From contig JAITXV010000033.1 in NCBI GenBank assembly GCA_031284605.1, positions 1 through 39,984 of the forward strand: DNA of 39,984 nt, written 5' to 3'. How positions within the stretch are numbered: position 1 is the first letter of the stretch; the number at the start of each line of letters is the position of its first letter. Position numbers and translations under genes: made by a program. Below, piece after piece: positions 2-39,984 of the stretch. Source of the DNA: Acholeplasmatales bacterium. Lineage in GTDB: Bacteria > Bacillota_I > Bacilli_A > Acholeplasmatales > Acholeplasmataceae. The notes beneath the pieces were generated by a model. That model was not told the origin of the DNA. It saw nothing but the letters and a program-made list of their open reading frames with translations, and made no database searches.

Positions 2-895
2 AAAGAAGATTTTGTTTTAATCCACGATGCTGCTAGACCACTTATTACTTCATCTTTAATTAAAAACATTTTAGAAATTGATTATAATTTTTATAACTGC
101 GCTGTTGTTTGTAAAAATATAAGCAATTCATTGTTTGATAAACAAAAAAGAACCCACTTAGATAGAAATAATTTTTTATCATTAGAAACCCCTCAGGTTT
201 TTAAGGTAACTGATATAAAAACAGCTTATGACAATATAGATGATAATATGGTGTTTTATGACGATTTAAGCGTGTTATTAAACACTTTCCCTAACAAAAG
301 CATAAACTACTTCATCTATAATGAAAATAACTTAAAATTAACTTATGAGAGTGATTTTTATTTAATTAGTAATTTACTTCACGGTATTGATAATACAAAT
401 TATATTTATAAGATTGGTTATTCTTATGATTTTCATAAATTAGTTAAAAATAGGAAACTAATACTAGGAGGAATAGAAATTCCTAGCGAAAAAGGCCTGC
501 TTGGTCATAGTGACGCAGATTGTTTATTGCATGCAATAGCAGAAAGTTTTCTAGGAGCATTAAGCTTAGGGGATTTAGGAAAGTACTATCCTGATACAAA
601 TATAGCATTTTTGAACAAAGATTCTAAAGAAATCTTAAAAGAGATATATAATATAATAATATCTAATGGATTTTTAATAAACAATATAGATTGTATGGTT
701 CATTTAGAAAAACCAAAATTAGGTATGTATATAGATAAACAAAAATTAACAATAGCATCTATATTAGCTATAGATCCTTCATTAATTAGTATAAAAGCTA
801 CTACTAATGAAAGAGTTGGATTAGTAGGAAAAGAAAAAGGTATAGCTTGTAGTGTGATGACGTTATTAAGAAAAGAGGTAAAAAATGGTAATTGA
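2..895 (+). CDS. ispDF: Bifunctional IspD-IspF (MEP isoprenoid pathway), 5' end outside the window
   Basis: The frame is open from base 2 and no start is visible, so the N-terminal half of the IspD domain lies upstream. The visible IspD part has IHDAARP (visible residues 7-13) and ETPQ (about 62-65), both IspD hallmarks (2-C-methyl-D-erythritol 4-phosphate cytidylyltransferase). The same frame continues into a complete IspF domain (2-C-methyl-D-erythritol 2,4-cyclodiphosphate synthase): the metal site D-F-H near 143-145, GHSDAD near 168-173, LGDLGKYYPDT and the C-terminal KATTNERVG. The two halves catalyse non-consecutive cytosolic steps of isoprenoid precursor synthesis. A TTG at 131 could be mistaken for a start, but the IspD motifs upstream of it rule that out. 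It ends in TGA and overlaps yutD by 11 bases. Confidence 0.93.
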   Translation, partial: KEDFVLIHDAARPLITSSLIKNILEIDYNFYNCAVVCKNISNSLFDKQKRTHLDRNNFLSLETPQVFKVTDIKTAYDNIDDNMVFYDDLSVLLNTFPNKSINYFIYNENNLKLTYESDFYLISNLLHGIDNTNYIYKIGYSYDFHKLVKNRKLILGGIEIPSEKGLLGHSDADCLLHAIAESFLGALSLGDLGKYYPDTNIAFLNKDSKEILKEIYNIIISNGFLINNIDCMVHLEKPKLGMYIDKQKLTIASILAIDPSLISIKATTNERVGLVGKEKGIACSVMTLLRKEVKNGN

Positions 896-1166
896 TACGA
901 AATATGGACAATTTGAGTTAGTAAAAAATTATAAAGATGCTTTTAATATAACTGCATTTGAGACTAGGTATGTAGATGTGGCTTTTGATAGATATTCCTA
1001 TATTTTAGGTGATATAGCCATTGATAGTGTAAATGGTAATAAACTAAGATTAAAAGGTTTTTCTACTAATGAAAAAAGTGTTAGTTCTTACAAGAAGATA
1101 CCTGATTATTTAGCAGAATACTGCAATGTAGATGCTGCTTATTATATATTAAGGAGAATAAAATAA
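885..1166 (+). CDS. yutD: YutD family protein (DUF1027)
   Basis: A 93-residue protein of the YutD/DUF1027 family, widespread in Bacillota and of unknown function. What I recognise is the order of conserved blocks: NYKDAFN near the start, FETRY...DRYSYILGD, then LRLKGF, and the C-terminal IPDYLAEYCN with a following aromatic stretch. It has no signal peptide or membrane segment, so it is cytosolic. The ATG overlaps the end of ispDF and the next gene starts directly after its stop, so it is translated within the same operon. The assignment to the family is firm; a molecular role cannot be given. Confidence 0.85.
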   Translation: MVIDTKYGQFELVKNYKDAFNITAFETRYVDVAFDRYSYILGDIAIDSVNGNKLRLKGFSTNEKSVSSYKKIPDYLAEYCNVDAAYYILRRIK

Positions 1167-1167
1167 A

Positions 1168-1479
1168 ATGGCAGTAGATTTAAAAAAACAATATGATTTA
1201 GTTGTGGAATACATTAGTCAAATAACTCCTTATATAAAAAGAGATGGTGGAGATTTAAGTATAACTAAAATAGAAGATGGAATAGTTTATATTAAAATGT
1301 TTGGGGCGTGTATTGAATGTAAAAGTTTAGATATAACCTTAAAAGATGGAATTGAGGCTATGCTTATTGAGAATGTAGAAGGTATTATAGGTGTTACATT
1401 AGATAACGAAGATATAACTACTGACCAATATTTAGATTCACTTTTTGATGAAGCTGAAAATAAAACAAATAAGAAATAA
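1168..1479 (+). CDS. NifU C-terminal-domain Fe-S scaffold protein
   Basis: A 103-residue single-domain protein resembling the NifU C-terminal (Nfu) domain, which carries or transfers iron-sulfur clusters in the cytosol. The diagnostic stretch is RDGGDLS followed by GACIECKSLDITLKDGIE, where C-I-E-C supplies the CxxC pair that binds a cluster between two subunits; the usual family form is GACxxCPSS. The C-terminal 25 residues are acidic and polar and probably disordered. It sits one base after yutD, with an AAGGAG ribosome binding site (1151-1156) inside the end of yutD. The Bacillus counterpart is YutI. Fe-S clients elsewhere in this window include the ferredoxin-fused reductase at 31645-32763. 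Confidence 0.87.
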   Translation: MAVDLKKQYDLVVEYISQITPYIKRDGGDLSITKIEDGIVYIKMFGACIECKSLDITLKDGIEAMLIENVEGIIGVTLDNEDITTDQYLDSLFDEAENKTNKK

Positions 1480-1492
1480 GGAGATATAAGAA

Positions 1493-2773
1493 ATGAAAGA
1501 AAAAATAACAGTTAATAAACAATACTTATTACCGTTTTTAAAAGAAGATTATCATGTGTACCAGGCTAAAGTTAAAGAAATCCATAATGGATTAATTGCT
1601 AAGACTTTACTAGGTAGTGATTTTTTAGGATGGCTAGATTTACCTGTTAATCCAAAAACAGAAGAAATTAATTTTATTAAAGATTTTTCTAAAAAAATAA
1701 GAAAAGAAAAAGCATATTTAGTAGTAATAGGGATTGGAGGATCTTATTTAGGAGCTAAAGCAGCTATTAGTTTTTTAGCTAAACCTTTTAGTTCTTCTAA
1801 AGTAATATTTGCAGGATATAACACAAAAGGTGAATATTTAGAAGGTTTATGTAAGTTTTTACAAAATAAAGACTTTTATATTAATATTATTTCTAAAAGT
1901 GGAACTACTTTAGAACCTGCTCTTAGCTTTAGAGTAATAAAAAATTTATTAGCTAAAAAATACCCAGATACTTGGAAAGAAAGAATAGTAGCTACTACTG
2001 ATAAAGCAAGAGGCGCATTATATACTGAAAGTGTTAATAACGGATATACTAAACTAGTAATAGAAGATAATGTAGGAGGCAGATATTCTGTTTTAAGCGC
2101 TGTTGGATTATTAGCTGCTAGCGTTTATGGTATAAACATAGATAAACTATTAAAAGGTGCATTAGATGCATACAAAGATTTACTTAATCCATCACTTGAT
2201 AAAAATGATGCATATTTTTATGCGGTTGCTAGATATATGCTATATAAGGATAATAAAGTTACTGAGTTATTAATTAATTATGATGAATCACTAAATTATT
2301 TATCTGAATGGAGTAAACAGTTATTTTGTGAATCTGAAGGTAAAGATAAAAAAGGATTATTAGTTGGAAGTATGAGTTATACAACTGATTTACATAGTTT
2401 AGGTCAATATGTACAAGACGGATTAAGAAATGTGTTTGAGACTATTTACAATGTAGAAAACGTTAGCACAGATTATTTAATTAGTGAAGATGATAAAAAT
2501 TATGATAAATTAAATTCTCTTGCAGGTAAACATTTTAAGGATATAACAGGAGCTGCTATGCAAGGAGTAATAAATGCTCACACAGAAGGCGGAGTACCTA
2601 ATATTATTATTAATATACCTTCTAAAAATGCATATTGTTTAGGTTATTTGTTTTACTTTTTAGAAAAAGCTTGTGCTATTAGTGCTCATCTTTTAGAAGT
2701 TAATCCATTTAATCAGCCAGGTGTTGAAAGTTATAAAAAAGAAATGTTTAAGCTCTTAGGACTACTCAAATAA
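1493..2773 (+). CDS. pgi: Glucose-6-phosphate isomerase
   Basis: A 426-residue phosphoglucose isomerase interconverting glucose 6-phosphate and fructose 6-phosphate in glycolysis. Visible family features are IGIGGSYLG (79-87), the phosphate-binding SKSGTT (134-139), VGGRYSVLSAVG (194-205), the catalytic region around CESEGK (near 277) and HTEGGVPN toward the C-terminus. The length fits the short bacterial form (about 430-450 residues). The start is set by an AAGGAG site a few bases upstream of the ATG. It lies in the same direction as the Nfu gene before it (13-base gap) and tsaE after it (5-base gap), so one operon is likely. Confidence 0.96.
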   Translation: MKEKITVNKQYLLPFLKEDYHVYQAKVKEIHNGLIAKTLLGSDFLGWLDLPVNPKTEEINFIKDFSKKIRKEKAYLVVIGIGGSYLGAKAAISFLAKPFSSSKVIFAGYNTKGEYLEGLCKFLQNKDFYINIISKSGTTLEPALSFRVIKNLLAKKYPDTWKERIVATTDKARGALYTESVNNGYTKLVIEDNVGGRYSVLSAVGLLAASVYGINIDKLLKGALDAYKDLLNPSLDKNDAYFYAVARYMLYKDNKVTELLINYDESLNYLSEWSKQLFCESEGKDKKGLLVGSMSYTTDLHSLGQYVQDGLRNVFETIYNVENVSTDYLISEDDKNYDKLNSLAGKHFKDITGAAMQGVINAHTEGGVPNIIINIPSKNAYCLGYLFYFLEKACAISAHLLEVNPFNQPGVESYKKEMFKLLGLLK

Positions 2774-2778
2774 AAATA

Positions 2779-3228
2779 ATGAAAAAGATATTTAGTGGAA
2801 TAGGTACTATAGAACTTACTAAAAGAGTTGCGTACCTAATAAGTAAACAAATAGTTGAGGGTGATTGTATTTTACTTGGGGGAGATTTAGGAAGTGGTAA
2901 AACTACTTTTACTAAATTTTTAGGAGAATTTTTAGGAATAAAAGAAATCATTTCTTCTCCTACCTTTACTATATTAAAACAATATGAAACAAAAAAATTT
3001 ACATTTAATCATTTTGATTTTTATCGTTTATCAAATGATAAAGATAATGATTTTGATTTTATTGATTATATTGAAGATAAGAAAAGTGTTTCAGTGATAG
3101 AATGGTATAATCAATATGAAAAAATTTTACCAACGCAATATATATTAATAAATTTTAAAGAAATTGGAGAAAATAGATTAATAGAAGTTTTTTCTAGTAA
3201 CCACATAGAGAGCATAGAAAATGAATAG
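2779..3228 (+). CDS. tsaE: tRNA t6A biosynthesis ATPase TsaE
   Basis: A 149-residue P-loop protein of the TsaE/YjeE family, the ATPase that works with TsaB and TsaD to make N6-threonylcarbamoyladenosine at position 37 of ANN-reading tRNAs. The Walker A loop GDLGSGKTT (35-43) is followed by SSPTFTILKQYE and HFDFYRL, the typical family blocks, and an EWYNQYEKILP segment. The length is standard. The gene follows pgi by 5 bases and its end overlaps the tsaB-rimI fusion by 8 bases, so the three t6A genes are co-translated. Confidence 0.94.
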   Translation: MKKIFSGIGTIELTKRVAYLISKQIVEGDCILLGGDLGSGKTTFTKFLGEFLGIKEIISSPTFTILKQYETKKFTFNHFDFYRLSNDKDNDFDFIDYIEDKKSVSVIEWYNQYEKILPTQYILINFKEIGENRLIEVFSSNHIESIENE

Positions 3229-4234
3229 ACTGTTTCTTGATACATCAAACAATTTTAGTTATATAGCTTTAACTAAAGATAACAATTTAATAGACTTTTT
3301 TGTAAGGGTTCAAAAAAATGATTTAGCCGCTTATTTTACTAATGATATTAATAATTTGTTAGTTAAAAACAATTTGACTGTTAAAGACATAGAAGGGATA
3401 ATAGTAGGGGTAGGACCTGGAAGTTATACAGGGTTAAGGATAGCTATAACTAACGCTAAAATGTTAGCTTATTTTTTGAATATTAAATTGTTTACAGTGT
3501 CTAGTTTGTTTTTACTTACTAGTGGTTATGATAAAGTATTGGCTTATGAGGATGCTAGAAATAACAATTATTTTATAGGAGTATATGAAAAAAATAAAAC
3601 TATAGTTAAAGATGGTTTTTATAATATTAATTTTTTAAGTGCTAAAAATTACCAAAAAGTTTTGATAAGTGATGAAACTTATAAAGTAGATGTAAAAAAA
3701 GTAATTAAAAAAGCTAAAGAAAATGATAATTTTATTTTGTTAGAACCTTCCTATCTTAGAGAAACTGAAGCACAAAGAAATCTTAGTAATTCTAGTGTTA
3801 GATGCTGTATAAGGAAAACAATAGTTTTAGATTATAATCAAATAATTGATATTGAAAAAGAAAGTTTTGGTAATGATGTAAACTATATTGATTCTTATTT
3901 TGATAATAACAAAAATATATTACAAGCATTTTCTTTTATAGAAAATGGCATTTTAAAAGGATATATTTTATATTCTGTTAATAATGATACTGCTTGGATT
4001 GTTTCTATAGCAGTCAAAAATGAATACAAATGTGCGGGTATTGGTACTAAACTAATAAATAAAATAAAAATAAGAAAAAATATAAACAGTATCGGGTTAG
4101 ATGTTAGATTTGATAACTTAAACGCTATTGGGTTTTATACCAAAAATGGTTTTAAATATTTTAAAACAGTCGCTTCATATTATCAAAATCCCGTTTGTGA
4201 TTCGCGTGTTTTTATTTGGGAGAAAAAAATATGA
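3221..4234 (+). CDS. tsaB: TsaB-RimI fusion: t6A synthesis partner joined to a GNAT acetyltransferase
   Basis: One 337-residue protein with two domains. Residues 1 to about 190 are TsaB: LDTSNN at the N-terminus and GVGPGSYTGLRI (64-74), the ASKHA-fold signature. TsaB lacks catalysis itself and dimerises with TsaD. Residues from about 195 to the end look like a GNAT acetyltransferase of the RimI type, with the acetyl-CoA loop around AGIGTKL (about 272) and a C-terminal LNAIGFYTKNGF block. RimI acetylates the N-terminus of ribosomal protein S18; that substrate is taken from the family and is not shown here. tsaB and rimI are separate neighbouring genes in many bacteria. The stop overlaps the tsaD start as ATGA. 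Confidence 0.9.
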   Translation: MNRLFLDTSNNFSYIALTKDNNLIDFFVRVQKNDLAAYFTNDINNLLVKNNLTVKDIEGIIVGVGPGSYTGLRIAITNAKMLAYFLNIKLFTVSSLFLLTSGYDKVLAYEDARNNNYFIGVYEKNKTIVKDGFYNINFLSAKNYQKVLISDETYKVDVKKVIKKAKENDNFILLEPSYLRETEAQRNLSNSSVRCCIRKTIVLDYNQIIDIEKESFGNDVNYIDSYFDNNKNILQAFSFIENGILKGYILYSVNNDTAWIVSIAVKNEYKCAGIGTKLINKIKIRKNINSIGLDVRFDNLNAIGFYTKNGFKYFKTVASYYQNPVCDSRVFIWEKKI

Positions 4235-5232
4235 TTATATTATCAGTTGAAACAAGTTGTGATGAAACAAGTGTAGCTATTAGTATAGACGGGAAACAAA
4301 TTTTATCGAATATAGTTTTATCACAAATAGATATACATACTTTATATGGTGGCGTAGTTCCTGAGATAGCTAGTAGGAACCACACTAAATTTGTTCTTGA
4401 AGTTTTTATTAGGGCTATAAATGAAGCTAAAATAAAAATAAGCGATATTAACCTAATAGCAGTAACAAATGGTCCTGGATTAATGGGTTCTTTGTTAGTT
4501 GGAGTAAGTGCTGCTTTAGCATTTGGGTTAGCTAATAACATAAAAGTCATAGGAGTAAACCATTTATTAGGTCATATTTTTTCATCTAACATCGATAATG
4601 ATATAGTTTTCCCTGCTGTTAGTTTATTAGTAAGCGGAGGACACACTGATTTAATATACTTAGAAGATTATTATACTTATAAAGTTTTAGGAGTTACATT
4701 AGATGATGCAGTTGGTGAAACTTATGACAAAGTAGCACGTATATTAGGTTTAGGTTATCCTGGAGGTCCTATAATAGATAAGGAAGCTAAAAAGGGAGTA
4801 TCTAATATTAAGTTTCCAGTACCTAAAGTGGATTTACCATACCATTTTAGTTTTTCAGGGTTAAAAAGTGCAGTATTAAATAAATATAATAGTGACATTA
4901 AAACAAATGAGAAAATAAATATAAGCGATTATGCATCAAGCTTTCAAGATTCTGTATTAAAACAATTATTAAGTAATACTAAAAAGGCTGTAAATGAATA
5001 TAAAGTTAATACTTTAATTTTAGCAGGTGGTGTTAGTGCTAATTCTGCACTAAGAGAGTTATTTAAAAATGAATTTTCTAATATCAATTTATTAATACCT
5101 AAATTTGCGTATTGTACTGATAACGCAGCTATGATTGGAAGAGCTGGATATTTGATGTATTTGAAAAATAAAAAAACAAATGATGAATATATTTTGAAAA
5201 CATATTCAACTGCTAGATTTAGTGACTTATAA
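4231..5232 (+). CDS. tsaD: tRNA N6-threonylcarbamoyladenosine transferase TsaD
   Basis: A 333-residue TsaD (Kae1/YgjD family), the catalytic subunit that transfers threonylcarbamoyl to A37 of tRNA. The start ETSCDETSVAI, the metal-binding pair H111 and H115 in NHLLGH, SGGHTDL, FSFSGLKSAV, and the C-terminal CTDNAAMIGRAG are all present. I use ATG 4231 and not the upstream TTG at 4216: a GGGAG site lies about 8 bases before the ATG, and the protein then begins at the conserved position. It overlaps the tsaB-rimI stop by 4 bases (ATGA). The whole tsaE/tsaB-rimI/tsaD set is therefore contiguous. Confidence 0.96.
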   Translation: MIILSVETSCDETSVAISIDGKQILSNIVLSQIDIHTLYGGVVPEIASRNHTKFVLEVFIRAINEAKIKISDINLIAVTNGPGLMGSLLVGVSAALAFGLANNIKVIGVNHLLGHIFSSNIDNDIVFPAVSLLVSGGHTDLIYLEDYYTYKVLGVTLDDAVGETYDKVARILGLGYPGGPIIDKEAKKGVSNIKFPVPKVDLPYHFSFSGLKSAVLNKYNSDIKTNEKINISDYASSFQDSVLKQLLSNTKKAVNEYKVNTLILAGGVSANSALRELFKNEFSNINLLIPKFAYCTDNAAMIGRAGYLMYLKNKKTNDEYILKTYSTARFSDL

Positions 5233-26253: not shown

Positions 26254-28521
26254 TTACCTTTGTTCGTATTGAACTGATACTATAGCATAATTTTCAGCAA
26301 TTTCTTGAACAACAATAGATACTTTAGGATTATATTTACCAACTGTATACCATTTATATTGATTCCAGTTGTATAAGTTACCTTCTAATTTAAATAGTTC
26401 TGGGTCACCAGCTGTAAAATTCTTTGAGGTAGTATTTCTGTTTTTAGCTGAAATCCAATCAATTAATTTATGATCAGTATATGAGTTATTAAACATAAAC
26501 GGAGTGCCAAGTGTAGCATCAACATGATATACTCTTACTCCTGAGGCTGCAGGTGCAGAACTAGTGTATGAAAATAAACCAGTTTTTGTATAATAATCAA
26601 CTACTAAGTATTCAGTAAAGAATGAATGATTCCAATGGTAAGGGATAATTAGAGACTGACCAGAAGCAGGAGCATTATATAATTTAACAGTTACAGTTTC
26701 AGTTATAACTTGTGGAACTGTCCAACCTAATAAGATTTTGTTCCAAGGTCCATGATCTCCGTAATTGTAGTCCATCATATCAAAACCACCTAAACCTCCA
26801 CCAGCACCAACTTCATCATCATAATCATAAAAATCAGGTAAACCAAACATATGACCAGATTCATGGATAAATGTTTCACATTGAATAGGAATTTTTGAAT
26901 ATGCTCCTTCATAAAAGAAATCAAAACTTGCCCACATAAATACAGATGGTCTTATTTCTACTTCATCGCCTTCGTTATAAATAACATCTGGGTAACTATC
27001 ATATCCTTCAAGATACAAAGATTTATGAGCCCACCATTGTCCAGCCCATTCATTTGAATGAGGTCTCGCATATACTAAATAAATTCCATCAACATAACCG
27101 TCTCCGTTTGCATCGTGTTGAGTTATAGTTGTATTGTTATTTACATATTCCATAGATAAATTAATAGCTTGATAATCTAATCTATCACCATAAGTACTAG
27201 CAAATAAAGTTGAAGTCATATTTACTGCAAATGGTTCTAATATAGTTGGATTATAATTTACTGTACCATAACTTGTTTTATTATAATAACTAGCAACAGA
27301 TTCCCATCCAGTATCTGCGGGGTTTGTGCCAGCTTCACCAAAACCAATTCTTAAAGTCTCCATTCTTGTAAAATTTTTACCAGGAGCGGTACCATTATTA
27401 TCAGAAAATTTATAGTCAGTAAATTCTATTGGAATTACTATTGGATTAACTGTAATTGACTCTCTTGCATCAAGAGCACTTGTTGGTACAGATGCACTAT
27501 TACCTGCTGCAGGTGGAATACCAACTCTTAATTGACTATTACCAAATGCTTGCATTTGATCAGGAAGGGTTCTAATAGGGTTAGCATATATACCTTCGCC
27601 TCCTCCGTTATAATATTGATAAGGAGCGTATTCAGTAGTAACATAGTTTGCTTTTGAAACAGTTATTTCATATGTTCTTGAATCGTAAGTAGCATTATAT
27701 TTTACTATAGCAACTAAAGAAATACTTGTAGTAGCGAATGTTGGTGTTAATACACCATCTCCTGCTAATACTTCTGGTACACTTGAATTCCATAATACAG
27801 ATACTCCTTCTATTCCTGGGTCTGACAATAAATTGATATTAGCGTTTACAGCATTTGGATTAGGCATACTTGCATTTAAAGCATTTTCTACTACTACCCA
27901 TGCTTCTGATATTTTAATGTTAGTATCGCTTCCAGCTATTTGGTTATATTTAGCAACTAATATATAAGTTTTATTAATCAAAGTAGTAGATAAATCAACT
28001 ATTACATCATTTTCTGTCCAACCAACAAATTCATATCCAATTCTATCTGGAGTTGGAATACTAGCAGCTGGAATAATTGAAGAAGCATTAACACTAATAA
28101 CTTCAATTGAGTAAACGCAATTAAATGTTACTAAAAAGCTTGTTGCAGGAGCTTCTTCGCTTAAACCTAAAACGTTTGCTGTAAATTTATAACTAAAAGA
28201 TAAATCTTTATATGATAGTGTATATGTCAATATTACAACTTTTGATGAAGATGCTTGATGCACTACTGCACTGCCTCCGCTTATTGTAATAACTGCTGTA
28301 TCACTACTTACACAAGATACGCTTACACCTTCTACATCACTAGGAATAACAAAGTCATCGCCATCCTCTAAATTACTTAAATTAAGAGAAGAACTTATAC
28401 TTGCATAAGCGCTTTGAATTTTGTCAAATTCTTCTTTATGCAAAATTTGATCAGTTCCGCATGAAACAGCAACTAAAGAGAAAAATAATATGTTTATTAA
28501 TAATAATAATTTTTTAATCAT
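26254..28521 (-). CDS. Secreted M6-type zinc metalloprotease lipoprotein with intact active site
   Basis: A 755-residue exported lipoprotein (lipobox AVSC, cysteine 21). Order: an N-terminal Ig-like stretch, an InlB B-repeat-like module around 130-195 (IPTPDRIGYEFVGWTEND), a second Ig-like part, then a peptidase of the immune-inhibitor-A (M6) type from about 290. The zinc motif HESGHMFGLPD has H553, E554 and H557, with D563 following. A calcium-loop-like DANGDGYVDGIYLVYA and GGFDMMDYNYGDHGPWNK are also typical of M6. It would be tethered outside the cell and cut large proteins. It follows its paralogue by 12 bases with an AGGAGG site, and lies upstream of oppA, which suggests its products feed the importer. 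Confidence 0.9.
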   Translation of the reverse strand: MIKKLLLLINILFFSLVAVSCGTDQILHKEEFDKIQSAYASISSSLNLSNLEDGDDFVIPSDVEGVSVSCVSSDTAVITISGGSAVVHQASSSKVVILTYTLSYKDLSFSYKFTANVLGLSEEAPATSFLVTFNCVYSIEVISVNASSIIPAASIPTPDRIGYEFVGWTENDVIVDLSTTLINKTYILVAKYNQIAGSDTNIKISEAWVVVENALNASMPNPNAVNANINLLSDPGIEGVSVLWNSSVPEVLAGDGVLTPTFATTSISLVAIVKYNATYDSRTYEITVSKANYVTTEYAPYQYYNGGGEGIYANPIRTLPDQMQAFGNSQLRVGIPPAAGNSASVPTSALDARESITVNPIVIPIEFTDYKFSDNNGTAPGKNFTRMETLRIGFGEAGTNPADTGWESVASYYNKTSYGTVNYNPTILEPFAVNMTSTLFASTYGDRLDYQAINLSMEYVNNNTTITQHDANGDGYVDGIYLVYARPHSNEWAGQWWAHKSLYLEGYDSYPDVIYNEGDEVEIRPSVFMWASFDFFYEGAYSKIPIQCETFIHESGHMFGLPDFYDYDDEVGAGGGLGGFDMMDYNYGDHGPWNKILLGWTVPQVITETVTVKLYNAPASGQSLIIPYHWNHSFFTEYLVVDYYTKTGLFSYTSSAPAASGVRVYHVDATLGTPFMFNNSYTDHKLIDWISAKNRNTTSKNFTAGDPELFKLEGNLYNWNQYKWYTVGKYNPKVSIVVQEIAENYAIVSVQYEQR

Positions 28522-28533
28522 TTTTTTTACCTC

Positions 28534-30714
28534 CTAAATGAATGTTATGCTGATAACAGCATAATCATCGTCTGGGTCAATAGTTAAAACTTTAATATTT
28601 AATCTACTTCCATCTGCAAATTTAAATTTAGACCAAGAATAAGTTGAAGCTTGATTGAAAAGTGCAGCATCTGTAGCTGGGGATTCACTAGTAATTGTTG
28701 GACCACTACCAGCAAACAATTGGATTAGTTTTCCATTAGTATAAATATTACTAGCAGGATTAAACGAAGTTGTTGGATTAAATGTTACATAATATATTCT
28801 TACACCTCTTGTTGTAAATACTGGCATTCCAGTATAGTGTTGTGCTTGGATAGCATACATTCCATTTGGTGTATAATAATCAACTAATAAGTAATCTCCA
28901 TAATATGAATTATTCCAATTAGGTTTTATAAGTAAAGTTTGACCAGTAGTTGAAGCAGGAGATAATTTAATCATAGCTGATGAAGTAACTACTTGTGGAG
29001 CAATCCAACCCATTACGAGTTTACTCCAAGGACCGTGATCTCCTGTGTTAGAGTGCATCATATCCATATATCCTAATCCATTTTGTACTTCAGGACCTCT
29101 TGCATATTCATAATAATAAGGTAATCCGAAAAATCTTCCAGATTCATGAATAATGATTTCAGCATTTACGTTAATATCTAATTCTTTTACGTTTTCAATT
29201 AAATTTTCAACACTATACCAAACATATCCGTATGGGCGATAAACTACTGAGTTTTGTTCATAACTTATATCTCCTAAAGTATATTCAGATTTTCTATATA
29301 AATCATGATATGTCCAGTAAGGAGGGTATGTTCCAGTTAATTGTTGTGGTGCTGAATATACTATGTATATAGCATCAATATATCCATCTCCATTAGCGTC
29401 GTGTTGTGCAAAGTTAATTGAATCTTTAATTGTGTCAAGAGCTAGTTTTAAAGCATTATAATCAAGATAATTTTTATTTCCATAAGCTCCAGCGGTTTCA
29501 AACTGAGCAACTGTTACATTTGTATGAACTACAGGTGTAACTACTCCGTTTATATCAACGTGATTATATGAAGATTTTTGATAGAAAGTTCTTAATGATT
29601 CCCATCCTGTTTCTTGACTAGTACCAAACCAACCTTTTTCAATTTTATCTAATTCTTCAGGTGTGAAGCTGTCATTAGAAAAATCAATAGGTACTACTAT
29701 AGCATTTACGCTAGTTATGCCTTCACTACTATATGATGGAGCTTGAATAACTTGACCAAGTGATGCCATCTTATCTTGTAGTAATTGTACACCTGAAACA
29801 TCAGAAGCAGTAAAATTAGTAACTTCATCCCAAGGTATTTGATATTTATGAACCACAAAAGTAAATGATCTAGTTTCCTGATAATCAGCAGTAGCGTTTA
29901 TTAAAGTTTTTGGAACTCTAAGTTTTGCAGATAAAGTTACAGATGTATCTGCATCCATAGGTTTTGTTAAAATTCCTAATAAACTAATAACGCTAGAATT
30001 AGTTGTAGTCCAGGTTACTTTAGCTGTTGCATAGGTTTCACCTTTTAGTGGTAAAACAAGATTTTGGTCAACTACGTTTCCATCTGTTACATTTGAATAA
30101 AGAATAGCAATAACCTCACTCCAAGTTATGGCTATTGGATTATCAGCCAAAGAAACACTTGAATACTTAGCATTAAAAATGTGAGATTCATTTATAACTA
30201 CGTCAGTAACTATAACCTCGATTCCGTTTTCAAACCATCCTACAAAGATATAACTATCTAAGTTAGGAGTAGGAACATCAGATGATGCTACTTTTGCACC
30301 AGCAGGAACACTTATTACTTTCACATCACTTCCATAATGGAATATTACACTATATTCGGTTGGGGTAGGTATAACAGCCTCCAATCCTAGTACTATAACA
30401 TTATAATGATATGTAGCAGTAGTTTCTCTAAACACTGCAGTAATAGTTAGTTTAACTAATACATCATTTTCAGATCTAGTTACTACAGCGTTTTGATTGT
30501 TAATAACAATAGCAGCGTTATCACTAGCGTATGAAAATTGTACTGAAGATACATCACTTAATAAACTAAAGTTTGATGTGGTGCTAGTTGGTAAGCTATC
30601 TGAAACACTGTTGTAAGCGTCTTGAATAATTTTATAATCAACCTGTTCGCCTTTACAAGAAACAAATAGTATTCCAAGTAATATAGCATTGAATAAAATG
30701 ATAATTTTTTTCAT
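28534..30714 (-). CDS. M6-type metalloprotease paralogue with a destroyed zinc site
   Basis: A 726-residue lipoprotein (lipobox FVSC, cysteine 20) with the same architecture as the gene after it: Ig-like part, InlB B-repeat-like module (VPTPNLDSYIFVGWFENG), Ig-like part and M6-type domain. The DANGDGYIDAIYIVYSA loop and GYMDMMHSNTGDHGPW are kept, but the zinc motif reads HESGRFFGLPY: H523 and E524 remain while the second histidine is R527 and the motif aspartate is Y533. The frame is otherwise full-length, so it is a probable non-catalytic partner, not a decaying gene. It has no ribosome binding site of its own; a ten-codon open frame ends 9 bases upstream. Confidence 0.88.
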   Translation of the reverse strand: MKKIIILFNAILLGILFVSCKGEQVDYKIIQDAYNSVSDSLPTSTTSNFSLLSDVSSVQFSYASDNAAIVINNQNAVVTRSENDVLVKLTITAVFRETTATYHYNVIVLGLEAVIPTPTEYSVIFHYGSDVKVISVPAGAKVASSDVPTPNLDSYIFVGWFENGIEVIVTDVVINESHIFNAKYSSVSLADNPIAITWSEVIAILYSNVTDGNVVDQNLVLPLKGETYATAKVTWTTTNSSVISLLGILTKPMDADTSVTLSAKLRVPKTLINATADYQETRSFTFVVHKYQIPWDEVTNFTASDVSGVQLLQDKMASLGQVIQAPSYSSEGITSVNAIVVPIDFSNDSFTPEELDKIEKGWFGTSQETGWESLRTFYQKSSYNHVDINGVVTPVVHTNVTVAQFETAGAYGNKNYLDYNALKLALDTIKDSINFAQHDANGDGYIDAIYIVYSAPQQLTGTYPPYWTYHDLYRKSEYTLGDISYEQNSVVYRPYGYVWYSVENLIENVKELDINVNAEIIIHESGRFFGLPYYYEYARGPEVQNGLGYMDMMHSNTGDHGPWSKLVMGWIAPQVVTSSAMIKLSPASTTGQTLLIKPNWNNSYYGDYLLVDYYTPNGMYAIQAQHYTGMPVFTTRGVRIYYVTFNPTTSFNPASNIYTNGKLIQLFAGSGPTITSESPATDAALFNQASTYSWSKFKFADGSRLNIKVLTIDPDDDYAVISITFI

Positions 30715-35626: not shown

Positions 35627-36499
35627 ATGAGATTCAAAAAAGTAGATTTAAGTTTTCAAAGTTGTAATAGTGAATATAATGCTGCAGATGTAGTTATTTT
35701 TAGTGCCCCTATGGATACTACTACTAGTTTTAGACCTGGCACTAGATTTGCAGGTAATGCTGTAAGAGTAGATAGTATAGGAATAGAATGGTATAGCCCT
35801 TATAGAAATCTAAGTTTAAAAGATTTTAAAACTTGTGATATAGGAGATTTAGATTTTGGAGTAGGAAATATTAAGCTTCAATTAAGCGAAATATTCAATA
35901 CTACTAAACGAATTTTAAAAGATAATAAAACTCCTATTATGATAGGTGGAGAACATCTAGCATCATATAGTACTATAAAAGCTGTATATGAAAAATATCC
36001 AGATTTGCGTGTTATTCATTTTGATGCTCATACCGATTTAAGAGAAAGTTTTTTAGGAAATACATATAGTCATGCTACATTTATGAGACACGTTAATGAG
36101 TTTTTAGGAGATCATAAGATATACCAATTTGGAATAAGAAGTGGTGACAAAGAAGAATTTGATTGGGCAAAAGACCATATTTATCAACATAAATATGATT
36201 TAGAAACTTTAGATAGTGTTGTAGAAGAGATTAAAAACTTCCCCGTTTATATTACAATTGATTTAGATGTTCTTGACCCTGCTGTCTTTCCTGGAACTGG
36301 TACCCCAGAACCAGGTGGAATAACTTACAAAGAATTATTAAAAGCCTTTGATTTGTTTGAAAAACTTACTAATATAGTTGGTTCTGACCTAATGGAACTA
36401 TCTCCATATCTTGATGCATCTGGTGCTTCAAATATGGCTGCTATAAAAGCTCTAAGGGAAATGATACTATTAATTCAAAAGAATAAGTCAAATAAATAA
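35627..36499 (+). CDS. speB: Agmatinase-family ureohydrolase
   Basis: A 290-residue binuclear manganese enzyme of the arginase/agmatinase family, which releases urea from agmatine to give putrescine. Metal ligands are seen in GGEHLASYS (about 106), HFDAHTDLR (about 130-138) and IDLDVLDPAVFPGTGTPEPGG (about 212), plus SHATFMRH. The GTGTPEPGG block favours agmatinase or a related guanidino-hydrolase over arginase; the exact substrate is not fixed by sequence. It follows pflB by 12 bases in the same direction, so they are probably co-transcribed, though no direct metabolic link is evident. Confidence 0.9.
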   Translation: MRFKKVDLSFQSCNSEYNAADVVIFSAPMDTTTSFRPGTRFAGNAVRVDSIGIEWYSPYRNLSLKDFKTCDIGDLDFGVGNIKLQLSEIFNTTKRILKDNKTPIMIGGEHLASYSTIKAVYEKYPDLRVIHFDAHTDLRESFLGNTYSHATFMRHVNEFLGDHKIYQFGIRSGDKEEFDWAKDHIYQHKYDLETLDSVVEEIKNFPVYITIDLDVLDPAVFPGTGTPEPGGITYKELLKAFDLFEKLTNIVGSDLMELSPYLDASGASNMAAIKALREMILLIQKNKSNK

Positions 36500-36564: not shown

Positions 36565-37047
36565 ATGAAAAAATTAATATTAGTATTTATGGTTCTATTA
36601 ACGTCTTTGTTTATAGCTAGTTGTGGTGGGGTTAATATCGATGGTCATAGGTTTGAATGTTCAAAATCTATTTTGAATGCAGTTAAAGTTGCTGGAAAAG
36701 ATACTCCTGAGGATTTAAGTGATGATATTTATACTGTTACTTTTGATTTAACTATTAGTATCAGAGAAAATAAAACAGAATATACTGTTTATAAAAATAA
36801 ATGGGTATTTTCAGAAACTACTTTAACATTTCATATGGCTAATACAAATTTAGGAATTGCTAATTTAGATGTTGAAACTGCTTTAGTTAATGCTAATTTA
36901 GAAGGTACTACTACATTCAAGTTTGTTTATTTATGGGTAGAGTTAGGAAACAAAACAAAGGAAGAGGTTGAACAACTTCAAAAGAGCTTTAATATTAAAT
37001 ATGGCACTACAAGAATTAATTTAACTACTGGGCTTATATATAAATAA
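36565..37047 (+). CDS. Lipoprotein of unknown function, 160 residues
   Basis: The signal MKKLILVFMVLLTSL ends in lipobox FIASC (cysteine 20). The mature 140 residues start GGVNIDGHRFECSKS and contain strand-like stretches such as DIYTVTFDLTISIREN and TTLTFHMANTN, suggesting a small beta domain. I cannot assign a family. It has its own extended -10 promoter and a strong terminator (37070-37109), so it is monocistronic. The start is supported by GAGAGGT. Confidence 0.82.
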   Translation: MKKLILVFMVLLTSLFIASCGGVNIDGHRFECSKSILNAVKVAGKDTPEDLSDDIYTVTFDLTISIRENKTEYTVYKNKWVFSETTLTFHMANTNLGIANLDVETALVNANLEGTTTFKFVYLWVELGNKTKEEVEQLQKSFNIKYGTTRINLTTGLIYK

Positions 37048-37069
37048 TATTAGATAAAACAAATTTAAT

Positions 37070-37109
37070 AAAACACTCTAAAGCTATTTATATAGATTTA
37101 GAGTGTTTT
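37070..37109 (+). terminator. Rho-independent terminator after the 36565 gene
   Basis: AAAACACTCTAAA (37070-37082) and TTTAGAGTGTTTT (37097-37109) form a perfect 13-bp stem, followed by T-rich sequence. Confidence 0.88.
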
Positions 37110-37188
37110 TATTTTATTATTAACAAAAGTCCAAATAATCATTATTTCAAATTTGATTATGTAATATCTGATTTTTAGCATTAACTAA

Positions 37189-37216
37189 TTAACAAATGAT
37201 AAAAATGTGGTATCAT
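37189..37216 (+). promoter_or_regulatory. Promoter for the large right-edge gene
   Basis: TTAACA (37189-37194) and TATCAT (37211-37216) are 16 bases apart, with TGG before the -10. Transcription would start near 37223, giving a leader of about 80-90 bases. Confidence 0.5.
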
Positions 37217-37311
37217 ATAAATACTTTATAGAATAAAATTTAAATTTGTTGTACATATTTTCTTTAATAAAGAAATGAATTGTTATAAAATAAGCAACGA
37301 TGGAGCAAAAA

Positions 37312-39984
37312 GTGCAAATGGAAAAATATCTTTTAGATAAAACTGAGGAAATATTTCAAAAAAATAAGTTAATAGGAAATTATGACCTCTCAGAGGATGA
37401 CTACTCATCTTTTTTAGAAAAATGTTCATTCATTGTTAATAGTTGCATAAATAAAAATCCTTCCAATGTACCTCAAACTTATCACAAACTTATTTTTTTA
37501 GTCCTTGTCGAAATTACTAAACGCTGGAAAGACGAGGATGAATGTGACGACGAGGAAAGTGATGATAACAAATATAGCTATTGGAATTATGTCTACAAAA
37601 TTTTAAGGATTAGATCTGATTATTTTCAAAAAGCTTATAAGATGTTTGAAAATATTATTACATCTCTTGGAATGCAAAAAATTATTCCAGTTGTTGAAAA
37701 AGGAAAAAAATATTACGCTACTATAATGATGCATGCGCTTGCTCCTAAAAAAAGTATGGATGCATTTTTCGAGTTATGTCTTAATATTTACAAAAAAGAT
37801 TTAGATTTAAGTTTTACTGAAAGCGACATAGAATTTTGTGCTATAGCAGCAAAAATAACTAGCGATATCTTTTCGAAAATAAAAAGCAACAAAAACGGGG
37901 TGACTATTGGATCTAGCGTATATTCAATAAAGATAGGACTACGCGCTTTATCAATGCATAAAGATTTATCTGATTATTATATTGAATTTTTTAAACACAT
38001 ATTTATACTAATCGACAAATACTTTTGTGATGAATTAAACTCACATAAGACAAGGATTGAGCGACAACTAAGTGAATGGATAAACAAAATAACTAAGATC
38101 GATAAGAAATTCAATGATGATAAGAAAATACATATTGCTACTGTTTCTAAACAAAATATTAATGTAAAATATGCTCATTCAAAAAATGAAACTTTGATCA
38201 TTATTCCTGCTATAAGAATTGACAGTATTAATCAAAAATTATATCTAGAAATTTTTGTAGGCGATAACGAGTTTTTAGTGCATTCTCAAGAAATTCCTAC
38301 AAAGATTGGAGAAATAACTGTAACCACTAAGCAGTTGGAATTTGACCTTAATGATATTGTTAGGAAAGAAAAAGAAATAAAAATACGTGTTATTATAAAA
38401 GAAAACAATGTTGCAATATTTGATTCTAAAACAAGCAACAAATACACGCTAGATAGAGATTTTATACTTTTTGACAATAAAAGGGAAATATTTACCCAAT
38501 ACAACGATCTTAATAATTATTTTGTTTATTCACTTAAACCAGATTATTTATTACAAAAGCCTGAAAAATTTAACAGAATAAACACCAATTTATATAATAT
38601 ATACCCAAAAGATGGCGAAAAACTTTTTGGTTTAACTAAACAAATATATTTTTTTGAACACTCTAGTCCTACAAACCGTAATAACCCCAACTTTTTAGGT
38701 GGTCTAGAAAACGCAGAATGGAGATATAATGATGATATAAATTGCGAAATTTTTAGTGATCTTGTTATTCTACAAATTCCTGAAACAACTAATCCCAAAG
38801 AAATAGAACTAAATGTTGATAATAATAAAATCTTCTTAGCAAAACTAATTGCACAAACGACTGAAAATGGTTTTATGTCTTTTGATATATCAAAACTATT
38901 TTCTACTGATAAACCATGCAAATTTTCGATATTTTCATATATTAAAAATGATATTATACTGACAAAAAATATAGTTGTTTTTCATAATTTTAGTTTAAAG
39001 TTTAATAATAACTATTATTATGGAGACTGCCTCCACAATTTAATAATAGGGGGTGACGAATATAAAAAAGAAATAACTTGGACAAACGACGAAAATCAAA
39101 TTGTAACTCAATACAAAGAAGGCGAACTAATTATTAAAATTCCATATATCTGTTGGAAAATAACTGATAATGATTGGGAAAATAAACCATGCGAAAAAAT
39201 TAAGTGGTACAAAGATTATTTGAGTGCAAGCTCTATTCTAGAAATAATAAGTCCTGTGGGTTTAAGTGTCAGCAGTCTTATACTACAAACTGATTCTAAT
39301 AAAACTAACAAAGAAATTACAGAGAAAGGAAAAAAATTTGAAATAGGAAGAGTTGTTTATAATCTTAAAGATACAAAAATAGCAGAAATAAAATTTATAT
39401 ATCGTGGTATTGAAAATAGTATCATTAAGTTTGCAATGAAAGAACAGTTTGATCGATGCCCACTAGTATGTGAAAACTCAAGGGTTTATTGGAGACCACA
39501 AATAGGATATATTGGAGATAAAAAAAGTGAATTTATAGTCGAAATATTATCTAATAACAAATTGAAATTAAAAGAAAGCTTGTCCATGAATGAAAAGGAA
39601 ATTGGAGATTTTGAGGATGATTTATATAACTACAACATTTTTAAAAAATCAAATTCAATATTTAGTTCAACTCCAGAACTAATACAAAGTGATGTATTTT
39701 GTGTTGGAAATCCAAACAAATATAAATTTAAAAATAAATATTTGCAAATAAATGGGGTTTATTTATTAGCAAAAAGCGAATCAGATTTGTTTTTAAAAAA
39801 ACTATCCTCTATATATTTAATAAAAAATATAGAATACTATGAATATGAAAATCAAGATTTTTGGATAGGATCCCTATGTGTAATTTGTAAAGATGGCAAG
39901 ATAAAATATTTAGATTATCTAAAAAATGAGAAAGACATATGGGAAGTTACAAATCCTATAAGGTTAGAATTACGTGATAATAGA
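37312..39984 (+). CDS. Very large protein of unknown family, cut by the right edge
   Basis: One frame stays open for about 890 codons to the last base, so the C-terminus is missing. Three starts are possible: ATG 37300 without a ribosome site, GTG 37312 six bases after GGAG (my choice), and ATG 37318. No signal or membrane helix is visible, so it is cytosolic. Residues 1 to about 270 are helical, with TYHKLIFLVLVEITKRW, a very acidic patch (EDECDDEESDD), SDYFQKAYKMFENI and MMHALAPKKSMDAFF. After that it is mostly beta, as in series of Ig-like or sandwich modules (for example RDFILFDNKREI). CPLVC and CVIC occur near the end. Codons ending in C and rare codons (CGC, TCG, TCC) seem commoner than in neighbours, a hint of transfer. 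I do not recognise it. Confidence 0.85.
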   Translation, partial: MQMEKYLLDKTEEIFQKNKLIGNYDLSEDDYSSFLEKCSFIVNSCINKNPSNVPQTYHKLIFLVLVEITKRWKDEDECDDEESDDNKYSYWNYVYKILRIRSDYFQKAYKMFENIITSLGMQKIIPVVEKGKKYYATIMMHALAPKKSMDAFFELCLNIYKKDLDLSFTESDIEFCAIAAKITSDIFSKIKSNKNGVTIGSSVYSIKIGLRALSMHKDLSDYYIEFFKHIFILIDKYFCDELNSHKTRIERQLSEWINKITKIDKKFNDDKKIHIATVSKQNINVKYAHSKNETLIIIPAIRIDSINQKLYLEIFVGDNEFLVHSQEIPTKIGEITVTTKQLEFDLNDIVRKEKEIKIRVIIKENNVAIFDSKTSNKYTLDRDFILFDNKREIFTQYNDLNNYFVYSLKPDYLLQKPEKFNRINTNLYNIYPKDGEKLFGLTKQIYFFEHSSPTNRNNPNFLGGLENAEWRYNDDINCEIFSDLVILQIPETTNPKEIELNVDNNKIFLAKLIAQTTENGFMSFDISKLFSTDKPCKFSIFSYIKNDIILTKNIVVFHNFSLKFNNNYYYGDCLHNLIIGGDEYKKEITWTNDENQIVTQYKEGELIIKIPYICWKITDNDWENKPCEKIKWYKDYLSASSILEIISPVGLSVSSLILQTDSNKTNKEITEKGKKFEIGRVVYNLKDTKIAEIKFIYRGIENSIIKFAMKEQFDRCPLVCENSRVYWRPQIGYIGDKKSEFIVEILSNNKLKLKESLSMNEKEIGDFEDDLYNYNIFKKSNSIFSSTPELIQSDVFCVGNPNKYKFKNKYLQINGVYLLAKSESDLFLKKLSSIYLIKNIEYYEYENQDFWIGSLCVICKDGKIKYLDYLKNEKDIWEVTNPIRLELRDNR

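What the first reader, a model, noticed from the sequence alone, without database searches (positions are those of the whole stretch)
37300..39984. Unrecognised protein of at least 890 residues opening a possible accessory region
A continuous frame runs from about 37300 to the window edge. Its order (helical N-terminal third with a MHALAPKKS block and acidic patch, then serial beta modules) matches no housekeeping family I can name. C-ending and rare codons look more frequent than in the pfl-speB genes next door, and it has its own promoter after a strong terminator. Large cytosolic proteins of this kind often sit in defence or other mobile islands; that is inference only.
Basis: partly seen in the sequence, partly recalled or inferred. 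Interest (0 to 1): 0.78.

Follow-up and report, generated by a model that had tools for sequence, protein, structure and literature searches.

The report
Sensor-like partner of a Druantia-type phage defence
The unrecognised protein at the window's end is the first gene of a two-gene bacterial anti-phage system of the Druantia kind: a chain of immunoglobulin-like modules that probably senses infection and works with the helicase encoded next to it, and standard defence-gene catalogues miss it.

Summary
One frame runs from 37300 (start perhaps 37318) off the contig end, about 50 codons short of its stop. It encodes a helical N-terminal third, then tandem Ig/FnIII-like beta modules (AF2, pLDDT 83). 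It has its own terminator, a promoter-like site, and the lowest codon adaptation in the window.

It is very probably a defence gene. In 18 related loci it lies directly upstream of a DruE-type helicase (DEAD, Helicase_C, DUF1998/MZB), usually overlapping it by 8 bases. The window's genome carries the last 651 residues of such a helicase at the start of contig C66. Identity rankings of the two genes agree (rho 0.91), both have atypical codons, and a relative has speB and nrdD 1.1 kb apart with neither gene between. So C15 and C66 probably flank one acquired Druantia III-like operon.

The helicase clade is separate from Druantia III-A, and the own helicase has no fused nuclease. The partner is not DruH (STY4851/YjiT) by HMMER or profile comparison, although the same DruH profile finds a remote DruH. 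It belongs to its own superfamily of DruE partners. Best reading: a new variant of a known kind; the sensing mechanism is inferred by analogy with DruH.

The parts
37300..39984 (+). Partner gene of a Druantia III-like system (DruH-position protein), 895 codons, cut by the contig end; start codon 37300 or more likely 37318
37300..38124 (+). N-terminal alpha-helical domain (residues 1-275)
   Evidence: AF2 model with 19-sequence alignment, pLDDT 82.6 overall
37732..37767 (+).
   Evidence: invariant in the 19-member family; H145 in 25/26, P149 and S152 in 23/26 of the wider superfamily
38167..39984 (+). Tandem Ig/FnIII-like beta modules (residues 290-895)
   Evidence: AF2; Foldseek best matches in the PDB are tandem Ig/FnIII receptors, whole-length TM low
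37189..37216 (+). Promoter-like site TTAACA-16-TATCAT with TG extension
   Evidence: consensus match only
37067..37110 (+). Intrinsic terminator hairpin of the preceding gene, separating it from the defence gene
   Evidence: z -6.7; self-complementary match
35627..36499 (+). speB/agmatinase-type arginase family gene, left flank of the inserted operon; not part of the system
   Evidence: Pfam Arginase 1.2e-75; linked to nrdD in relatives
36565..37047 (+). Small lipoprotein gene, last gene before the insertion; not part of the system

Best explanation
The gene encodes the DruE partner of a two-gene Druantia III-like anti-phage system that entered this small AT-rich genome between speB and nrdD. 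The second gene, a DEAD-box/DUF1998 helicase without a fused nuclease, is inferred to begin just past the contig end; its last 651 residues open contig C66. Most likely mechanism: the partner's Ig-like chain recognises a phage protein or another product of infection, and the partner then switches the helicase on, perhaps through its helical domain. The activated helicase loads on 3' single-stranded DNA of replication intermediates and blocks phage replication or circularisation. Shown here: gene identity, pairing in relatives, fold class and atypical codons. Inferred: joining of C15 and C66. Inferred by analogy with DruH-DruE: sensing, activation and the DNA target.
For: The one homologue found by the protein itself (L007) overlaps a DruE gene by 8 bases. 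A helicase-anchored scan then found the homologue directly upstream in 18 loci, L007 included, with overlaps of 1-17 bases in 14 and gaps of 1-32 bases in 4. DruE assignment: PADLOC DruE1 at 1.9e-173 for L007 and 1.5e-91 for the own-genome fragment C66:1-1956, with Helicase_C and MZB domains. The window gene and the C66 fragment rank the same loci as closest (Spearman 0.91 over 19 loci). Both have low CAI (0.624, 0.585). In G012 speB and nrdD/nrdG are 1.1 kb apart with neither gene; speB lies upstream of nrdD on the same strand within 25 kb in 9 of 10 family genomes that hold both on one contig. L007 has CBASS and IetAS upstream. The Ig-like fold parallels the Ig-like DruH sensor (PMC13192584). 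DruH-DruE interaction and triggering by a phage tail protein are reported for a DruHE without a nuclease domain (PMC13316683).
Against: C15 and C66 are not joined in the assembly; about 3 kb, including the helicase's DEAD motif, is unseen, so the locus could be broken. Seventeen of the 18 loci were fetched through the helicase, so their helicase linkage is partly by construction; L077 has a nearly full helicase without the partner. No experiment exists for this family. Sequence and profile comparisons do not connect it to DruH, so transfer of mechanism is by analogy. Foldseek matches are only to the general Ig/FnIII class.
Confidence: 0.8

Rival explanations
1. It is a highly diverged true DruH: same ancestor as the STY4851/YjiT family, only beyond sequence detection. 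(A variant of the best explanation rather than an exclusive rival.)
For: Same position before DruE, similar size, same order of helical N-terminus then Ig-like modules starting near residue 257-290; a faint N-terminal alignment with the combined superfamily profile (hhalign 4.4%).
Against: Profile-profile comparison with an 8-member DruH alignment gives 0.5% probability, while the same DruH profile finds a remote DruH in Chryseobacterium at 96.4%. The DruH C-terminal helical region with its ATP site has no evident counterpart, this protein ending in beta modules.
Confidence: 0.4
2. The gene pair is a decayed remnant: the operon on C15/C66 is broken and no longer functional.
For: The assembly breaks inside the operon and 3 kb are unseen; other DruE loci in this group are visibly broken, for example L069 and L077 and Mycoplasmopsis arginini L128.
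Against: Both visible parts (895 and 651 codons) are open without stops, and conserved signature residues are intact.
Confidence: 0.1
3. A DNA-repair or housekeeping partner of a YprA/MrfA helicase rather than a defence gene.
For: YprA-family helicases include repair enzymes (PMC12458937).
Against: Sporadic presence (0 of 100 close relatives searched), atypical codons, defence neighbours in L007, and best PADLOC matches to DruE.
Confidence: 0.05
4. An adhesin or secreted surface protein, as the tandem Ig/FnIII matches might suggest.
For: Foldseek matches to receptor and phage-tail Ig/FnIII arrays.
Against: No evident signal peptide at the N-terminus (judged by eye), which is a conserved helical domain, and close linkage to a DNA helicase gene.
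Confidence: 0.03

Closest known systems
Druantia type III (DruH-DruE; for example E. coli ATCC 8739)
   Same: Two adjacent genes; partner about 1000 aa with helical N-terminus and Ig-like domains; DruE YprA-family helicase with DUF1998
   Different: Helicases form a separate clade; the own helicase ends shortly after MZB with no fused nuclease; partner not detectably related to DruH and without an evident counterpart of its C-terminal helical region
Druantia type III-like / III-B branch of Bell et al. 2025 (PMC12458937) and M. smegmatis MSMEG_1253-1254 (PMC13316683)
   Same: DruE usually without nuclease, in a branch distinct from III-A; two overlapping genes; M. smegmatis DruE is 1667 aa with DExD/H, helicase C and DUF1998
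   Different: Sequences of those systems were not available here, so identity of branch and of partner family is a lead, not a test; M. smegmatis DruH is 1132 aa, longer than this family
ARMADA type II (ArmC)
   Same: YprA-like helicase of the same defensive branch
   Different: Has BrxHII-like helicase, PglX-like methylase and ArmD; its helicases form their own clade; none of these genes are seen here

Membership tests
Druantia (DruE-containing system) | DruE YprA-like helicase with DEAD, Helicase_C and DUF1998/MZB | tested here: met
   In relatives met in full; in the own genome only the part from RecA2 to MZB is visible, on C66
Druantia type III | Two-gene operon, partner directly upstream of DruE | tested here: met
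   18 loci of the family; in the own genome inferred across a gap of about 3 kb
Druantia type III | Partner belongs to DruH (STY4851/YjiT, NF038336; PADLOC DruH) | tested here: not met
   No PADLOC or NCBIfam match; hhalign 0.5% against a DruH profile; positive control 96.4%
Druantia type III-A | DruE with C-terminal PLD nuclease domains (about 2000-2100 aa) | tested here: not met
   Own DruE ends about 36 residues after the MZB domain; most relatives are 1576-1642 aa; clade outside III-A
Druantia type III-like / III-B of Bell et al. | DruE in the distinct III-like branch, usually without nuclease | tested here: inconclusive
   Architecture agrees but their reference sequence GIH50614.1 was not available for the tree
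Druantia type I/II/IV | Partners DruA-D, DruM/F/G or DruF/DruL | tested here: not met
   Window protein and relatives match none of the PADLOC models; further operon genes in the gap cannot be excluded but are absent in relatives
Anti-phage defence system | Protection against phage | not testable with these tools
   needs an experiment

The most novel reading that the evidence does not exclude
The DruE helicase has recruited, independently of DruH, a second superfamily of large Ig-like partner proteins (at least three sequence families). It forms a mostly nuclease-free Druantia class spread through Bacillota, Mycoplasma relatives and Bacteroidota that current catalogues miss, in which the helicase itself, or an unseen catalytic centre in the partner, is the effector.
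Probability: 0.4. Interest if true: 0.65.

Novelty: new variant of a known kind. Interest (0 to 1): 0.5.

Why it matters
Druantia is thought to be a common helicase core activated by subtype-specific partners (PMC13192584). A second, sequence-unrelated partner superfamily with the same Ig-like layout would be a natural test of that idea and would show what a sensor must provide. It also explains a set of large unnamed proteins in gut Bacillota and Bacteroidota genomes, and would let defence-finding programs detect them.

Tried and rejected
Pfam, PADLOC, NCBIfam and PDB sequence searches with the window protein alone found nothing, and so did tblastn in plasmids. A single-sequence AF2 model was useless (pLDDT 31). 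Pattern scans of genome and viral contigs with the partner itself failed, probably because it is too diverged; anchoring on the helicase worked. Viral contigs gave no helicase relatives. A G508 match (E 1e-4) has no comparable open frame around it and lies among long repeat-rich frames; it was set aside as chance. A PADLOC PDC-M13B match (E 0.023) was not followed. Foldseek against the PDB and BFVD gave only the general Ig/FnIII class; DruH 9tud was not among the 50 rows listed, and its release date relative to that library is unknown, so nothing is concluded from its absence. A search of the own genome for the helicase N-terminal part found none, so the gap is real in this assembly. PADLOC scans of genes near other relatives gave no consistent further defence system.

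Full report
What is there. The frame at 37300-39984 is open over 895 codons to the window edge, far beyond chance. The window is the whole of contig C15, 39984 bp, so the gene is truncated by the assembly. Comparison with full-length relatives shows that about 50 residues are missing and that translation may begin at ATG 37318. A hairpin terminator at 37067-37110 and a promoter-like site at 37189-37216 separate it from the small lipoprotein gene upstream.

Against the other window genes its codon adaptation is the lowest (0.624; mean 0.723) and its share of C-ending codons the highest.

Finding relatives. The protein alone matches no family library and no solved structure. One full-length relative (28% identity) turned up in a genome of the same class. 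It has IetAS and a CBASS pair upstream, and it overlaps by 8 bases a helicase that PADLOC scores as DruE at 1.9e-173. The window's own genome holds the last 651 residues of such a helicase at the first base of contig C66.

A scan of the genome collection anchored on that helicase returned 30 loci. In 18 of them (one being the same locus as L007) a homologue of about 890-955 aa, or a longer open frame containing one, lies directly upstream of the helicase. Fourteen pairs overlap by 1-17 bases, most by 8, and four are 1-32 bases apart. A further locus, L060, begins inside the partner's last 50 codons. The one exception with a nearly full helicase and upstream sequence is L077; other loci without the partner hold cut or broken helicases. 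Because the scan was anchored on the helicase, this shows that the helicase clade nearly always carries the partner; the reverse rests on L007 and on the own genome. L049, fetched through its helicase, carries a more distant partner of the same family.

The window protein is closest to homologues in Bacteroidota and a few Clostridia (about 31-36% identity), and the own helicase fragment is closest to the same loci (60-65%). Across 19 loci the two identity rankings agree with rho 0.91. Related loci share history, so this supports but does not prove linkage.

Independent support for adjacency of C15 and C66. In G012, of the same family, speB (69% identical to the window's) is followed 1.1 kb later by nrdD and nrdG (71% and 50% identical to those on C66), with only a diacylglycerol-kinase-like gene between. 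In 9 of the 10 family genomes in which both genes lie on one contig, speB is upstream of nrdD on the same strand, 1 to 25 kb away. The defence operon therefore appears to be inserted in a conserved neighbourhood. The missing piece is about 3.0 kb (inference from homologue lengths).

Anatomy. With a 19-sequence alignment AF2 gives pLDDT 82.6: helices over residues 2-272, then strands almost to the end. Whole-chain pTM is 0.49, as expected for a flexible chain of modules. Foldseek matches are tandem Ig and FnIII arrays.

Relation to known systems. A tree of 47 YprA-type helicases puts the own fragment in a fully supported clade of 28, separate from seven DruE proteins that neighbour DruH (taken as III-A), from ARMADA II helicases and from DruA-associated helicases (quick method, some long branches). 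This clade falls into three groups whose partners (this family; L044/L045/L046; L047/L048/L050) are related to one another by profile comparison (95.5 to 98.7%) but not to DruH (0.1 to 0.5%). The DruH profile does detect the 995 aa partner in Chryseobacterium (96.4%), so the test has reach.

The own helicase ends shortly after its MZB domain, with no fused nuclease. Bell et al. (PMC12458937) describe a distinct Druantia III-like branch that most often lacks a nuclease, which fits, but the text held here does not name DruH or discuss that branch's partner. Li and He (PMC13316683) showed defence by a DruHE from M. smegmatis without a recognised nuclease domain; whether its DruH belongs to this superfamily was not testable here.

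Mechanism. Wu et al. (PMC13192584) argue that DruH senses late phage proteins through Ig-like domains and that DruE acts on DNA with 3' single-stranded parts. The same layout here makes sensing by the Ig chain and action through the helicase the most likely scheme; all of it is inference for this family. How a nuclease-free pair stops phage is open: helicase-driven disruption of replication, recruitment of host nucleases, or a cryptic site in the partner.

Verdict. The finding is a new variant of a known kind: the partner gene of a probably acquired Druantia III-like operon, in a partner superfamily that the libraries searched here do not hold.

Noticed in passing
L007:213-5210: Defence island upstream of the nearest-class homologue: IetA/IetS pair (213-3492) and a CBASS pair of CD-NTase and Cap15 (3717-5210), directly before the Druantia-like pair.
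   Followed up: partly
L049:1274-3157, L056:15181-16890 (tested); L066:8095-9801, L047:2830-4635, L050:1793-3493 (by position and size only): In several relatives a third gene follows the helicase: a NERD nuclease domain fused to a UvrD-like helicase. It may supply the nuclease that these DruE proteins lack; no such gene follows the helicase in the window's own genome.
   Followed up: partly
L010:2477-2878 (MT836674.1): A human-gut phage-labelled contig with two integrase-like frames carries a short frame with the same LLHALAPKQS signature, apparently a fragment of a related partner gene.
   Followed up: no
L128:1-791 and 2285-4081 (Mycoplasmopsis arginini plasmid record): Short pieces 89% identical to the L047-type helicase, next to broken NERD/helicase and restriction genes: apparently a decayed relative of the system.
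   Followed up: no
window 26254-28521 and 28534-30714 (-): Two adjacent lipoproteins resembling M6-type metalloproteases; the first has HESGHMFGLPD, the second HESGRFFGLPY, so the second seems to have lost metal ligands.
   Followed up: no
L124:2719-5706 (Chryseobacterium balustinum plasmid): A 995 aa unnamed protein before a DruE is a remote DruH by profile comparison (96.4%), beside a WYL regulator and type I restriction genes.
   Followed up: partly
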